Assembly (NCBI GenBank): GCA_025917655.1
Contig: CP084608.1
Location: forward strand, 1,116,001-1,180,000
Direction of reading: 5' to 3'
DNA: 64,000 nucleotides
Source: Chlorella sorokiniana
Lineage: Eukaryota > Chlorophyta > Trebouxiophyceae > Chlorellales > Chlorellaceae
Part shown: positions 19,825-50,957 of the stretch, in pieces
Position numbering within the stretch: position 1 is the stretch's first letter
Layout: every line of letters starts with the position of its first letter
The notes under the pieces: generated by a model
The model's database searches: none
Seen by the model: only the letters and a program-made list of their open reading frames with translations
What the model was told of the DNA's origin: nothing
Program-made: the position numbers and the translations under genes

Positions 19825-22529
19825 ATGCACAGCGCTCCAGCCCCGATATCAACTGGCTCCGGGAAGATGGCGAGCGGGCAGGAGGCGGGCGATCTCCGCC
19901 GCCTGGTGAGTCGCGCACGGTCGTTAGTCATGGGCTGCCCGCTGCAGGGCTCAGGCGCAAGCAATCGAGCCTTTGGCATGCATAATGAGGCTGTGCAAGA
20001 CGGCGAGCATCCCCGTAACATGCGCCCATCGGTCACGCCTCCGCCGCTGTGTCGGCAGGTGAACGAGGCGCACCCCCGCGTGCCGCCGACCTCGCCGAGC
20101 TGCACAGCCTGCAGAAAACGCGCAAGGATCGCGGTGAGACCCTGTAATGCAGTCAATTGTCATGCCTCCTCTTGCCTGCATGATTAACATCCGCATGAGC
20201 AGCTGCTGAGCACACCCATTTGAAACAGTCCCACTGTTTGGCGCAAGAGGTTGGCCGGCTGCGCCCACCCTTACCCCGCCCAGCCTCAAACCCTAACCTT
20301 TGCTCCTTGCTGCCATCCACCCCACGCCTCCCCTTCCCTTTGTCCGCGCCTCAGATGACACGGACAAGGCAGCCTCGCTATCTGCCACGCTCAAGTCGGC
20401 GTCACGCGAGGCCGGCCCGCGCGTCGTGGTGCGCGAGCCCAAACACCTCTACCTGCCGCAGTCTCCGCGCTCGCGCGCCGCCGCGGAGGCGGAACAGACC
20501 GACCTGATCAAGGAGATGTTCCATGAAATGGGGGACATTGGTCTGAAGCCGGTGGTGGTCTACCACAACCTGAGGTGGGCCCCCAGGGCGAGGGCAGCGC
20601 CCACCCAGTAGGGGGACCCCGGGGGACCATGCCCCGTATGCAGCGCGCCAAGATGACTGAAACCTGGCGCGGTCGTGCAGCATGTGTGGACGTTCAGTGG
20701 GGCGGGTGTGGGCCCCCAGGGCGAGGGCAGCGCCCACCCAGTAGGGGACCCCGGGGACCATGCCCCCGTATGCAGCGCGCCAAGATGACTGAAACCTGGC
20801 GCGGTCGTGCAGCATGTGTGGACGTTCAGTGGGGCGGGTGTAGCGCCCAGTCGGTCAGCAGAAGCAGGGGCCGGCTGCCCCTGGGATCCAGCTCCATGCA
20901 GCAACCACAGCGCCTGACAACACTCTCTCAGTGCACCTCCTGTACTGCAGCGTGCCGGAGCTGTACGAGCATGCCCTGAAGTACGAGCCCTCCACCCACA
21001 TCGTGGCCAGCGGCGCACTCGCCACGCTGTCGGGGCCAAGACTGGCCGCTCGCCCAAGTGCGCGTGAAGGGGGGGCAGCCGAGCCTGCAGCAACGCAGGG
21101 CGGCTGCTGCCTGGGGTGCTTGCGCATTCTTGGCAGGCCCGCAGGCCCGTTGGAATCTGCTTTGCCCTTACGTATGTCCTCTCTCGCCCCCTCCCCATTG
21201 GCCCATGCAGGGACAAGCGCGTGGTGAAGGAGCCGGGCAGCGAGGCGGACATCTGGTGGGGCGCCGGCAGCCCCAACTACGAGATGGACGAGCGCACCTT
21301 CATCCTCAACCGCGAGCGAGCCGTGGACTACCTCAACACCCTGGACAGGCTGTACGGTGGGAGCGCATGCGCGCCAGCCGCCCTAGCACCTCATTCGCAA
21401 TCGGACGTCTGTGCAGCAGCTGACCCAGCACGTCTGCTTGCGGTGGCTCACCTGGTTGCCTGCCGTGCCGCCTCCCGCCCCGCAGTGTTTGATGGCTACG
21501 CGGGCTGGGACCCGGAGGCGCGCTTCAAGATCCGCGTGGTGTGCGCGCGCCCCTACCACGCGCTCTTCATGCACAATATGCTCATCCGGTGAGGCGGCGG
21601 CACCTCCCACAGCAGGCACAGCATCAAACCTCAAGCGCAGGGTGCCAACCCGTAGCTGAAGCCGCGCTGCCAGCCCACAGCCAGTTAAAGCCGCGCTGCC
21701 AGCCCACAGCTGGTTGAAGCCGCGCTGCCAGCCCACGGCCGGTTGAAGCCGCGCTGCCAGCCCACAGCCACACCCGTGCCCCCTCCGCAGCCCCACCGAG
21801 GACGAGCTGCACGACTTCGGCACCCCGACTTCACCATCTACAACGGCGGCGCCTTCCCCGCCAACCGCTACACCTCCTACATGACCTCCTCCACCTCCAT
21901 CGACGTCTCGCTCAAGCACAACGAGATGGTGGGCGCCCGCGGGGAGGGCAGCGGGCGCTTGGTCGATCGTGGGCCTGGGGCAGGCTGCGGTCGTTGGCGA
22001 CCTGTATGAATCCCCTGGCTGCCTGGCGGCCTCGGCTTACGGTTCCTGCAACGGCCAGCAAGCCAGCCAGGCCCTCGAGCCAGGCGCTGTCGTCGGTCCA
22101 CTAGCAACCCTGTGCCCCTGCCTCCCCCTGCACCTTGGCTGCGCAGATCATCCTGGGCACTCAGTACGCGGGGAAATGAAGAAGGGCGTGTTCTCGCTCA
22201 TGCAGTACGTGCTGCCCAAGATGGGCATCCTGTCGCTGCACTCGGGCTGCAACGAGGGCAAGAACGGCGACGTCACCCTCTTCTTCGGCCTGTCGGGTGC
22301 GGCCCCAGCTCCCACAGCCCCTGCCTGCCGCCTGCACCCGCCGCACTGCAGGAAATCGCTGCAGGCCCTGCCTGTGTCTTGTGCTGTGCTGGCTGGGGCA
22401 GCGTGGAGGCAAGGCCGGCAGGCAGCCCAAACCGCTGCCACCCGGCTCCGCAGGCACCGGCAAGACCACGCTGTCGGCAGACCCCAACCGCCCCCTCATC
22501 GGCGACGACGAGCACGGCTGGAGCGACCG

Positions 22530-46589: not shown

Positions 46590-47700
46590 CCAGCGCGTCT
46601 AGCAGCTAGGCGCTTGTTGCAAGCTGCGAGGCTAGAACATCAGCCAGAGAATGCAAACACCGCTATCTGCATCTCACCGCACTCCCCAACAGTATCTGGC
46701 ACTGCTTGTAGTCAGCGTACTTCCAACAGCGCGCCTTGACGGTGTACCCCAGGCGGAACCCTGCCTGACTGTCTCATTGATGGACTTCAACGTGCCGGTC
46801 AGGCAGGGTTTTGCCTGGGGTACAACGTCGAGGCGCGCTGCTGGAGGTACGCTGACTACAAGCAGAACCAGACCTGGCTGGCGAGTGCGGTCGAGAGAGT
46901 GCCTGCAGAGAGTGAGATTTGCCTCTCTGGCCGGTCTCCTAGCCTCGCAACATGTCAGTCTGGCGAGGGGAGGTCTGCGCATGAGAGCAGCTCTGAGCGT
47001 GCCTAAGCACCTCTTTCAAATAGGTGCAAAGCACACCTGACAATGCCAGGACCATGAGAGAACGGGCAGCGAACCAGCCCGCCAGCAGCTGGCAAGCACG
47101 GGCTGTCAGAACCCCAGTGCCACGGCCCACCTGTGCCTGCCGCCATCTCTCCATGCAGCTCCTCGAGATCGCAATCCACGTCTGGCACCAAGGATGTGCA
47201 AGAGAGCGGACAGAAGGGTTCGGCAGTTTTGCCCGATGCATCGTGCCACTGCTATCAGGCTGCTCCCAGCAGCAAGGAGGACACTGCCAGGTGAGAAACC
47301 GACACAACAAGCACCCTGTGTGCGCATTCATCCCAGCTGCAGCCCTGCCGATCTTTGATGACGGGGGTAGAAGGGCCCACCTGCCAGACCTGGGCCAAGG
47401 GCCTCCAGCCTCTTAACGCAGCCAGCAGCCAACTGGGCCATCTCGTGGTTGCGGTCATCACCGGCTGCATGCAAGTTGGCAAGGCTCACCAGTTGCGCTG
47501 CTATGGCAAGCAGCACTGGTGAGCTTTTCTAGCGTGGATGCGGCCATTGGTGACCACACCACAACCACGACCAATGGACGGCTGGCGCCGGTAAGGAGCA
47601 GGGGTTGAACCTCGAGGAGTGCGGTTGTCCGGAAACCCAATACTTTGAAGCTCATGCGGGGCAGATGGAGGTGGATTCGCCTTCAACCAGGCTTGGCTCA
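46590..47700 (-). pseudogene. Decayed copy (copy A) of the two-helix membrane protein gene at 49.4-50.9 kb
   Basis: Three exon-like segments align in order with the intact minus-strand gene at 49,397-50,957. About 47,510-47,395 (VSLANLHAAGDDRNHEMAQL) matches exon 1; about 47,195-47,120 (PDVDCDLEELHGEMAAGT) matches exon 2; and 46,769-46,702 (GFRLGYTVKARCWKYADYKQ) matches exon 3. The last membrane-spanning exon is missing; similarity ends near 46,590. The exon-3 segment is out of frame with its own 5' part and is present a second time in inverted orientation (46,798-46,865). It reads as a non-functional relic. Confidence 0.6.
46702..46865. repeat. Inverted repeat: 68-base arms around a 28-base loop
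   Basis: Left arm 46702-46769, loop 46770-46797, right arm 46798-46865. The left arm and the reverse complement of the right arm match at 62 of 68 positions. Four of the six differences would be G-U pairs in an RNA copied from the + strand, leaving two unpaired positions. Weaker inverted similarity continues outside both arms. Each arm is a copy of the same exon (ARCWKYADYKQ and ARCWRYADYKQ), placed head to head. Confidence 0.9.
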
Positions 47701-47871
47701 AACAAAGGGGCCTCGCCAAGTGTCAACCGCAACTCGGAAAACCGAAGGAAGTTTAGGAAACAACAAGCAGAAGCACAGAGCCAATCACAGACGTATGCCT
47801 AGAGCACGAGAGCGTCACGAGCGCGCGAGAGAGAGCCAGGCTCCCGTGGCGGCACTACAGTACACTCCGAC

Positions 47872-48990
47872 ATGCTGTTGCAACATGTTTGCGCTGCACA
47901 CTTGTCCGGTGTCGCTGCGCCCCTGGCCTGTGGTTTTTGCTTGCAAGACCCTGTGAGTATCTTTTATGTTCCCACGTACCGCGACCCCTTTTTGGCTGCC
48001 TTGCGGCCTGGTTTGCTCTTCGAGCAGAGCACGCCCCTGACAGCTTCGGTTGTACTGCGACGATCTCACCGCAGGAGCCCCACCACGAGCTGCTGTGCAC
48101 CGCGGCGGCAGGCTCCGCTCAGCGGCGGCAGGCTCCAACCTTGCGCAGCAACGACCAGCACATCGCCTGTTTGAGGGCAGCTGGATGGGCGCGCAGCACA
48201 GTTTACCCAAGCAAGAACACGCTCGACGATGTCAAGTAGACTCCTGGGTGGAAGGCACTCACCGATGGCTTTCCAGGCTCGAGCGCAAAGGAGCACCAGC
48301 CACCCTGAGGAAGGAGTACAGCGAAGCCATCGGTGTGTGGTGTGAGTTGAAGGCCGAGCAACGTGCACGGCGCAAGCGCGAAGGTGCGATGTCGAGGCAG
48401 GTGTGTGTGGGTTTTGGTTGCTGAGCGCCAGTTGTGGGATCCCTGAGCCGCTGTGTTCCCTGTTGCTTGCCTGCCGCCGCAGCTGCCTTCGAGGATGGTG
48501 AACAATTCCAACCAGAGAAGCCAGCACCCATGCCGTGTCCGCCATGGCTGGGTGAGCGGCCACAGAAAGCTTTCTATGCTGGGTGCCTCCCCGCCTGCCG
48601 TGCTGCCTGACTGCCGCTAAGGCAAGCGTGGCCATTCAACCTTCCCACGTGCTGCTGTCTCTGGGTCTCTGGGTCTCGTCTGCTGCAGATGCTGATGGCA
48701 GAGTGTGTACAACTGTCGCCACGTACTTGGCCTCCAACAAGGTGCCGTCGACGCTGATGAGCGCGGACAGTGCAGGGCCTGCACAGAGCACGAGGAGTCG
48801 CCAGCGGCGCAGTCTGCCTGGCGGCAGCACTGAGGGAGGTGATGACGTTGAGGGCAGGCGATGTTGCAGGCGATGTTGCAGGCGATGCGAGGATGCCACT
48901 GTGCTTGCACCGCCCGCAGTTCCCGCCAGGCTGGCATTGCCTGTCACACTGATGAACGCAACACCTGAAACAAACCGCATGTGCTGACCC
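47872..48990 (+). CDS. Unrecognised gene, copy A of a duplicated pair
   Basis: Function unknown. The best conserved part is 48185-48424 (MGAQHSLPKQEHARRCQVDS, then WLSRLERKGAPATLRKEYSE and AIGVWCELKAEQRARRKREG), which aligns closely with copy B at 51,427-51,666. The next conserved block, 48480-48560, lies between splice-like signals (cag and gtgagc). A third conserved block near 48740-48830 reads KVPSTLMSADSAGPAQSTRS. Composition is basic and charged, with no signal peptide or membrane helix. Upstream, the decayed membrane-protein gene runs in the opposite direction, as in copy B. Exon boundaries are uncertain. Confidence 0.4.
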
Positions 48991-49396: not shown

Positions 49397-50957
49397 TTAT
49401 TGCACCGCTGCTGCTGCTGCTGCCGCTGCTGGTGCTTCCATCTCCCGCTCCTCCACTGCTGGTGCTTCTAGATCCGGCTCCTCCGCTGCTGGTGCTTCCA
49501 GAACCCGCTCCTCCAATGGGGGTGCTTCCAGATCCCGCTGCCGCTGCGCTGCTTGCACCGAGCCGGCTGCACGAGGTCTGGGAGGCAGGGGTTTTGCCCC
49601 CAAGAGCTGAAAGTCAACGAGGGTTTCATTGAGGGCTTCCAGGCGCAGGAGCGCGGCCTTCGAAACCGCTGCCCACTCATAAAGCAGGCCTTCCAGCCGC
49701 GGCATCCCTGGCACTGCCGCAGAATTGGCTGCTGTCAAAACCGCTGCATCCCCCGCGATCAAAGGCAGATCATCCTTCTGGATGCTGTGGAAGATGGTTG
49801 AGTCCATGTAGATGGCGGCAATCACTGAGACGATTGCAATAAGAGGCCATGCGGGCACGGAAATGCCGACGTAGCGAGCAAATCTGGCCAACAGAAGAGC
49901 ACCTGGCACACGCAGGGGCACGCAAGCGTACTGCCGCTGCAAGCCCAGCGAGTAAGCTGGCCTGCCCAAGAACCAGCCATAACAGCCCAGGGTGTACCAA
50001 CCACAGCAAAGCATAAACCACACACGCATCTGCACAGGAGGGGGCCACACCTTGAGTGGGCACAAGCAACTGCAGCATTCGACAGCTGAGCGCTCGTTGC
50101 ATGCGAGGCTAGCAGACCCGCCAGAGCGTGCAACCGATATTCTCTGCACTGTACCGACCGCACTCACCGGCCATGTCTGGTACTGCTGGTAGTCGGTGTA
50201 CGTCCAGCAGCGCGCCAGGACGGTGGGACCCAGGCGGAGCCCTGCCACCGCCTCGTTTATAATCTTCAGCATGCTAATCATGCGGGTAGGGCCTGCACAT
50301 GAAATCAGATGCAAGCACACTTGAGAAAATCCTCAAACGGATGCAAAGCACACCTGACCCCGCCAGACCGTGAGATGACCGGGCAGCGAGCAAAAGCCCG
50401 CACACAGCTGGCCACCACGGGCTGTCCAGAACCCGGTGCTACAGCCCACCTGTGACTGCGGTCACCTCTTCTTCCAGCTCCTCGGCATTGCAAACCACGC
50501 TTTGCACCAAGGCTGTGCAAGAGGGCGGACAGAAGGATAGTCAGTTTCTCCCCGTTTTTGCTTCCCAACGCTGTCAGACTGCTCCCAGCAACAAGCAGGA
50601 CAATGCCAGGCCATTAACGAAGCAACAAGCAAACTGTCTGAGCATTTGCGCATGCTGCAACCCTGAACTCCTTTGACGTTTGGGGCAGAAGGGCCCACCT
50701 GGCAGAGCTGCAGCAAGCTGCGTCCGCAACCCATCGGCTTGAGCCGTCAGCCTGTCCATCTCTTCGTCGAGGACATCATCGGCCTCTTCCCTGTCCAAAA
50801 TGGCCTTCATCCGTACTGCGGTGATGGTCAGCTCGTCCAGCAGGCTTTGAAACTCGCGAAGAGCTTTTCTCGGCGGAAACGTGGGAACCTCAGGCTCAGG
50901 ATCCACAGGCGGGGCGAGTGGAGCGCATCCTCCTCCATGGGAAAACCTTTGGTTTAA
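49397..50957 (-). CDS. Two-helix membrane protein with C-terminal acidic repeats (intact copy B)
   Basis: Family not recognised. Exon 1 (about 50,930-50,700) encodes a helical region (PRKALREFQSLLDELTITAV, EEADDVLDEEMDRLTAQADG). Exon 2 (about 50,540-50,450) gives VQSVVCNAEELEEEVTAVT. Exon 3 (about 50,295-50,175) gives MISMLKIINEAVAGLRLGPT and LARCWTYTDYQQYQTW. The last exon (about 50,040-49,397) carries two hydrophobic segments (VWFMLCCGWYTLGCYGWFLG; SVPAWPLIAIVSVIAAIYM), a further helical region, and a tail of short repeats of the form LEAPxxEE ending in Ala-run AVQ and TAA at 49397-49399. The start codon is not resolved. It faces away from the + gene at 51.2 kb across a spacer of about 200 bases. 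The same pair, decayed, lies 3.3 kb to the left. Confidence 0.55.

What the first reader, a model, noticed from the sequence alone, without database searches (positions are those of the whole stretch)
46702..46865. Long hairpin made by head-to-head copies of one exon
68-base arms with 62 matches, and 66 of 68 pairable with G-U in a + strand RNA, around a 28-base loop. Both arms are copies of exon 3 of the membrane-protein gene whose intact copy lies 3.4 kb away (50,175-50,295). An inverted duplication of a gene fragment is the accepted route by which new microRNA or small-RNA loci arise, and this one could silence the intact paralogue.
Basis: partly seen in the sequence, partly recalled or inferred. 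Interest (0 to 1): 0.75.

Follow-up and report, generated by a model that had tools for sequence, protein, structure and literature searches.

The report
Old inverted exon duplication, unproven function
In what is probably a green alga, a broken copy of a gene carries one of its exons twice, head to head, so its RNA would fold into a very long hairpin; the hairpin is old, was found in three related places, and carries marks of a known DNA-copying error, but nothing shows yet that it silences any gene.

Summary
The 68-base arms match at 62 positions plus 4 G-U in + strand RNA, with a 28-base loop. The full palindrome is longer, 46625-46949, and folds 20.8 SD below shuffles.

It is not a one-off. 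Two further copies lie about 280 kb away on the same contig, in tandem units of the same gene pair, so the inverted duplication is older than the copying of those units. The inner 67 bp of the arms stayed alike within each hairpin while the outer arms drifted apart. In one copy the loop is inverted (35 of 36 bases match when flipped, 23 when not). Arm homogenisation plus spacer inversion is the published footprint of template switching.

The three hairpin copies look like pseudogenes; copy B, with sound exons 3-4, has no second arm. Silencing of B is weakly supported: 0 of 305 21-mers come within one mismatch of it. The genome encodes an Argonaute and a Dicer-like protein, so the hairpin could feed RNAi if transcribed. 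A second inverted duplication sits in the same units.

Ordinary in kind, a good natural experiment; function untested.

The parts
46625..46949 (.). Full palindrome (hairpin W), arms of about 160 bases around a centre near 46787
   Evidence: 46670-46900 folds at -183.8 kcal/mol, z -20.8
46702..46769 (-). Core left arm: exon 3 in its original place and orientation (- strand gene); carries 2 more bases than B there, so the exon-3 frame is shifted
46770..46797 (.). 28-base loop, first part of exon 3 (- strand); the same loop is inverted in copy Y
   Evidence: 35 of 36 vs 23 of 36 matches for 46766-46801
46798..46865 (+). Core right arm: inverted copy of exon 3, lying upstream of exon 3 in the - strand gene
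   Evidence: an excess of about 160 bases relative to B follows from the match coordinates
46866..46949 (+). Outer right arm: inverted copy of the end of exon 3 and the start of intron 3; left and right arms have drifted apart here
   Evidence: left-right divergence in the outer arms 30% (W), 17% (X), 28% (Y)
47412..47595 (.). Second palindrome of the same unit (arm identity 61% in W, 67% in X, 66% in Y), at the place of exon 1; similarity to B's exon 1 is weak (left arms 53-57%)
46594..48857 (.). Tandem unit A (hairpin-bearing): remnant of the - strand membrane-protein gene plus a + strand gene; homologous units at about C7:1437.6-1440.1 kb (X) and 1440.6-1442.8 kb (Y)
49397..50292 (-). Copy B, exons 3-4 of the membrane-protein gene, sound as far as checked, without the inverted arm; exon 4 encodes the 210-aa stretch P0001
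   Evidence: no Pfam family

Best explanation
The feature is an old, local inverted duplication of exon 3 plus the start of intron 3 in a tandemly copied membrane-protein gene without known family. It arose before the hairpin-bearing units W, X and Y separated (shown by the outer arms) and was carried along when the units were duplicated (shown). The hairpin-bearing gene copies decayed (shown by sequence, by B's gene model). The inner 67 bp of the arms were kept alike by arm-to-arm copying, most likely template switching at replication, which also flipped the loop in copy Y (footprint shown, mechanism inferred). If transcribed (not shown), the RNA would be a near-perfect stem of about 70 bp, extended by a mismatched stem to about 150 bp, that Dicer and Argonaute of this genome could process (inferred). 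It would then act like a proto-miRNA or hairpin-siRNA locus whose best matches are its own sister copies rather than copy B. Most likely it has no selected regulatory role.
For: One origin: in the outer arms left arms resemble left arms and right arms resemble right arms across the three loci (54/214 differences between arms within a hairpin vs 54/451 between loci for the same arm; ratio 2.11, bootstrap 95% 1.45-3.23). Concerted core: 10/199 within vs 29/398 between, ratio 0.69 (0.45-1.00). Loop inversion in Y: 35/36 flipped vs 23/36. Both signatures are described for template switching between inverted repeats (PMC8604942 and PMC8794818, passages read; the latter tells of MIR633 made as a reverse-complement repeat with a later loop inversion). 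Pseudogene state: W has no BLAST match to B, X or Y below 46594, so no exon 4, has GGGAGT in place of the GTGAGT donor and a 2-base difference in exon 3; X and Y have no AG at the aligned acceptor before exon 4. Place: the hairpin search gave 7 matches at 4 places (W, X, Y and B), all on C7.
Against: The core changes more slowly across loci than the rest of the unit: 14 of 134 columns vary vs 356 of 1737 (Fisher P = 0.005; columns of the two arms are not independent, so P is too small; left arm 3 of 66, right arm 11 of 68). Neutral arm-to-arm copying alone should not slow change, so some constraint is possible. The second palindrome in the same units shows no such homogenisation (arms 61-67% alike within, 86-91% between loci). 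Copying by gene conversion or recombination between arms would fit as well as template switching. Three copies are few for a quantitative model.
Confidence: 0.68

Rival explanations
1. A working small-RNA locus (proto-miRNA or hairpin siRNA) that selection keeps paired, silencing members of this gene family in trans.
For: Argonaute: Piwi domain over the cut-off, spliced PIWI pieces match Argonaute-2 in the PDB at E 1.6e-67. Dicer-like gene: Dicer dimerisation domain over the cut-off at C1:1090937-1091110, with helicase and RNase III pieces below their cut-offs on the same strand within about 6 kb. Core variable columns 14/134 vs 356/1737. 21-mers of W match X (21 of 305) and Y (52 of 305) perfectly. 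Pairing is kept in all three copies found. Rfam's mir-4436 model scores the stem at E 1.2e-5.
Against: B is a poor target: 0 of 305 within 1 mismatch. The perfectly matched copies X and Y look broken. Arm homogenisation has a neutral cause with an independent signature, the flipped loop. The mir-4436 score is 37 bits against a gathering score of 74, as any long stem may give. No RNA data. No RdRP match, but no control rang either, so that is uninformative.
Confidence: 0.18
2. The pairing is kept because both arms are coding exons, used in alternative or opposite transcripts.
For: The core lies in exon 3; frames are open across both arms; the core varies less than the rest of the unit.
Against: W and Y differ by 2 bases from B in exon 3, shifting the frame; the W donor and the X and Y acceptors are lost. 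X against B over 26 aligned exon-3 codons: 16 same, 8 amino-acid-changing, 2 silent, so little protein constraint.
Confidence: 0.07
3. A mobile fold-back element inserted into the gene.
For: Long, strong inverted repeat present in several copies.
Against: The arms are the gene's own exon and intron; the hairpin sits at the same place in each of the three units; the genome searches found it only there; spread follows unit duplication.
Confidence: 0.03
4. The inverted arm is an assembly artefact.
For: Inverted repeats can be misassembled; no reads were available.
Against: Three places carry it with about 12% divergence in the outer arms and locus-specific changes in both arms.
Confidence: 0.02

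Closest known systems
Proto-miRNA loci from inverted duplication of target genes (model of Allen et al. 2004, recalled and as told in PMC3237417, passages read; S-locus precursors in PMC13128112, passages read)
   Same: Head-to-head copies of a gene fragment, near-perfect long stem, extended similarity to the source gene family, pseudogene setting, host with Dicer-like and Argonaute genes.
   Different: No transcript or small-RNA evidence; the sound source paralogue is not closely matched; three related copies in tandem units; a second palindrome in the same units.
Template-switch (quasipalindrome) evolution of inverted repeats (PMC8604942, PMC8794818, passages read)
   Same: Arms homogenised near the centre and the spacer inverted in one of three copies.
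   Different: Arms of about 67 bp and a spacer of about 28-36 bases; the yeast cases in the passages I read have arms of 7-16 bp and spacer inversions of 2-5 substitutions, so recombination or gene conversion between arms is an alternative here.
Chlamydomonas miRNAs (PMC5511227, passages read)
   Same: Alga; [quoted passage not shown]
   Different: Those are Argonaute-bound small RNAs found by sequencing; here only the DNA is known, and no call named the organism.

Membership tests
Inverted-duplication proto-miRNA / hairpin-siRNA locus | Inverted repeat with extended similarity to a gene | tested here: met
   Left arm region vs B 72.5% over 200 columns, right arm vs B 76.5% over 162; 74% for both in the joint alignment
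Inverted-duplication proto-miRNA / hairpin-siRNA locus | Transcribed and diced into 20-24 nt RNAs | not testable with these tools
   No RNA data held
Inverted-duplication proto-miRNA / hairpin-siRNA locus | Near-perfect match to a sound target gene | tested here: not met
   21-mers against B (50060-50340): W 0 of 305 with 0-1 mismatch, 6 with 2; Y 0 of 315 with 0-1; X 0 of 302 perfect, 6 with 1. In 92 kb outside the hairpins no other site for W with up to 2 mismatches. Short sites elsewhere in the genome were not searched; the 80-base genome search missed even B, so it cannot exclude them
Inverted-duplication proto-miRNA / hairpin-siRNA locus | Host has Argonaute and Dicer | tested here: met
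   Piwi over cut-off, PDB match to Argonaute-2; Dicer_dimer over cut-off. Of six open frames from the Dicer region sent to Pfam, three matched: Dicer_dimer over its cut-off, Helicase_C (23.2 vs 23.5 bits) and Ribonuclease_3 (22 vs 27) below theirs; three had no match
Known miRNA family (Rfam 15) | Match over the gathering score | tested here: not met
   Best is mir-4436 at 46744-46823, 37 bits against a gathering score of 74, E 1.2e-5; mir-7948 at the second palindrome, 20.2 against 82
Template-switched inverted repeat | Arms homogenised near the centre relative to the rest | tested here: met
   Ratio within/between 0.69 (core) vs 2.11 (outer), intervals do not overlap
Template-switched inverted repeat | Spacer inversion | tested here: met
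   Copy Y, 35/36 flipped vs 23/36; X is oriented as W (29/36 vs 21/36)
Template-switched inverted repeat | Copying by polymerase template switching rather than recombination between arms | not testable with these tools
   Both leave the same footprint in three sequences
Fold-back transposable element | Dispersed copies outside a common segmental duplication | tested here: not met
   Found only in three units of this gene pair on C7; the tool's counts are lower bounds

The most novel reading that the evidence does not exclude
The units are two-hairpin small-RNA loci: a decayed gene family in which two exons were each inverted-duplicated, of which the exon-3 hairpin is kept paired in three copies by template switching together with selection, so that they silence their own family; template switching would then be the means by which a small-RNA precursor is kept near-perfect in an alga.
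Probability: 0.15. Interest if true: 0.6.

Novelty: new member of a known kind. Interest (0 to 1): 0.36.

Why it matters
Three related hairpins of one origin, with a loop flip and a homogenised core but drifting outer arms, make a clean case for asking whether long hairpins are kept near-perfect by mutation or by selection. That question bears on how new small-RNA genes survive their first period. If small RNAs are found, this would be an intermediate in small-RNA birth with a readable history; if not, it is a caution against reading good pairing as function.

Tried and rejected
Protein family of the source gene: no Pfam match. The search of 5.8 billion proteins returned one protein at E up to 0.001, the window's own 210-aa stretch; its sensitivity is limited. 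In the own genome the protein has one more distant match, C1:4067809-4068291 (34%, E 1.4e-11, residues 86-249, that is exon 4 and not exon 3); not followed.

Naming the organism: PEPCK exon pieces (521 hits, best 120 listed) gave a mix of plant, bacterial and unnamed hits; an LRR-like frame gave none. That it is a green alga is my inference from genome size, G+C and introns, not shown.

Rfam: sub-threshold matches only. RdRP: no match, but no control rang, so uninformative. The two over-cut-off RNase III hits on C3 look by eye like single-domain enzymes, not Dicer.

Mobile-element, coding and artefact readings: see the rivals. Literature: six searches. Eight papers were opened: seven as found passages and PMC7599482 as abstract and outline. 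None of the passages read concerns this locus; none of the searches named its gene, which has no name.

Full report
What was checked. The stated arms and loop are exact: 62 of 68 Watson-Crick pairs, 4 G-U and 2 mismatches in + strand RNA, 28-base loop. The palindrome is longer than stated, 46625-46949. RNA of 46670-46900 folds at -183.8 kcal/mol, 20.8 SD below dinucleotide shuffles, and the other strand at -182.7. In the 92 kb compared with itself (window plus 28 kb around the other copies; low complexity masked, E up to 1e-3, arm centres within 1.5 kb) close inverted repeats were of only two kinds, both in these units.

Copies. The window is part of contig C7 of a 38.8 Mb genome in 15 contigs. 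Searching that genome with the hairpin gave 7 matches at 4 places, all on C7: the hairpin W itself, two more hairpins X (C7:1439769-1440080) and Y (C7:1442457-1442791), and the single-armed copy B in the window (ends of X and Y). A search with 80 bases of the left arm at E up to 10 gave 6 matches, both arms of the three hairpins; it did not list B, so weaker relatives can be missed. The tool notes that its counts are lower bounds.

Setting. The hairpins lie in tandem units that pair a - strand gene (the membrane protein) with a + strand gene. The window holds unit A with hairpin W and unit B without. The region 280 kb away, in the opposite orientation, holds units X and Y with hairpins and two partial units without. 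By the match coordinates, unit A has about 160 bases more than B between exon 3 and the upstream exon, which is the right arm. The right arm is thus an inverted copy of exon 3 and the start of intron 3 placed next to its source.

State of the genes. In B, exon 3 (about 50168-50292) joins exon 4 in frame through a GT..AG intron, read by eye; the upstream exons of B were not checked. In W the donor reads GGGAGT, exon 3 differs from B by 2 bases, and BLAST similarity stops at 46594, before exon 4. In X exon 3 keeps B's frame, but X and Y have no AG at the aligned acceptor of exon 4. So the three copies with hairpins look decayed, and the copy without looks sound as far as checked. These are readings by B's gene model; another model could exist. 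Over 26 aligned exon-3 codons X and B share 16, and differ by 8 amino-acid-changing and 2 silent codons, so protein constraint on exon 3 is weak.

History of the arms. In the outer arms (82 alignment columns) the left and right arms of one hairpin differ at 54 of 214 cells, whereas the same arm at different loci differs at 54 of 451: ratio 2.11 (bootstrap 1.45-3.23). In the core (67 columns) the counts are 10 of 199 and 29 of 398: ratio 0.69 (0.45-1.00). The outer arms therefore show an inverted duplication older than the split of the three loci, and the core has evolved in concert within each hairpin. The loop of Y is inverted: 36 bases around the loop match W at 35 when flipped and at 23 when not; X matches at 29 unflipped and 21 flipped. 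One core column has a clean change shared by both arms of one hairpin only (Y). RNAalifold on the three lists 4 of 137 pairs with a two-sided change and an unfavourable covariation term of +3.08, so covariation gives no support for selection on pairing.

Reading. Homogenised arms and an inverted spacer are what PMC8604942 (passages) describes for template switching between inverted repeats, and PMC8794818 (passages) reports microRNA loci made as reverse-complement repeats, MIR633 with a later loop inversion. The arms here are longer than the yeast cases in the passages I read, so recombination or gene conversion between arms is also possible. Either way there is a mutational cause for the good pairing, and pairing alone is no evidence for a small RNA.

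Hints of constraint. The core varies at 14 of 134 columns among W, X and Y, the rest of the unit at 356 of 1737 (Fisher P 0.005; the arms are not independent, so this is generous). The low value comes mostly from the left arm (3 of 66) rather than the right (11 of 68). Of 508 overlapping windows of 68 bases, 21 were less variable than the left core and 153 less than the right. The stretch 48691-48845 in the + strand gene is about as conserved as the left core (8 of 152) (all).

Could it silence? The genome encodes an Argonaute: Piwi domain over the cut-off; PIWI pieces spliced by eye align to Argonaute-2 at E 1.6e-67 and share its DVTHP, RDGVSEGQF and YAHL stretches (that these hold catalytic residues is recalled). 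It also encodes a Dicer-like protein: Dicer dimerisation domain over the cut-off, with a helicase C piece just under its cut-off and RNase III pieces under theirs on the same strand within about 6 kb; three of the six frames sent had no match. PMC4014436 (passages) reports single Dicer and Argonaute genes in Chlorella and Coccomyxa, and PMC7599482 (abstract) and PMC6678167 (passages) report miRNAs from such algae, but no call named this organism. Of 305 21-mers from hairpin W, none matches B (50060-50340) with 0 or 1 mismatch and 6 with 2; 21 match X and 52 match Y perfectly. For X against B, 6 of 302 have 1 mismatch; for Y against B, none of 315 has fewer than 2 (both target strands). In the whole 92 kb outside the hairpins the same 6 sites in B are the only ones with up to 2 mismatches, one starting in exon 3 and five in intron 3. 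PMC13128112 (passages) describes proto-miRNA loci as inverted repeats forming long hairpins with heterogeneous small RNAs and little evidence of an effect on expression, which is the most I would expect here. Rfam's mir-4436 model scores the stem at E 1.2e-5 but at half its gathering score (37 of 74 bits); I take it as a resemblance of stems.

Second palindrome. The same three units carry another, 47412-47595 in the window, at the place of exon 1 of the same gene; its left arms are only 53-57% like B's exon 1, so that assignment rests mainly on position. Its arms are 61-67% alike within a locus, while like arms are 86-91% alike between loci. It has not been homogenised, although X's copy still folds at -170 kcal/mol for 271 nt (no shuffle control). 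At C7:1444305-1444407 the search found a match in one orientation only. Two separate inverted duplications in one gene are unusual and unexplained.

Verdict. A real, old inverted exon duplication, in pseudogene-like copies, with the footprint of arm-to-arm copying. It is a new member of a known kind. Regulatory function is possible but unproven, and the specific claim of silencing the paralogue is weak.

Noticed in passing
47412-47595; also C7:1439143-1439326 and C7:1441825-1442002: Second inverted duplication (probably exon 1) in the same three units, not homogenised, unlike the exon-3 hairpin.
   Followed up: partly
48691-48845: Stretch of the + strand gene far more conserved among units (8 of 152 columns vary) than the rest of the unit; probably a coding exon.
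   Followed up: no
49423-49539: Three overlapping copies at 30-base spacing in exon 4 of copy B, encoding an acidic, alanine- and proline-rich repeat.
   Followed up: no
20575-20850: Tandem pair of about 145 bases at 96% identity.
   Followed up: no
C1:4067809-4068291 of the own genome: Distant relative (34%) of exon 4 of the membrane-protein gene on another contig.
   Followed up: no
C1:3585026-3586341 and C1:1086348-1092147 of the own genome: Argonaute and Dicer-like genes; the only places over the cut-off in the Piwi and Dicer_dimer searches.
   Followed up: partly
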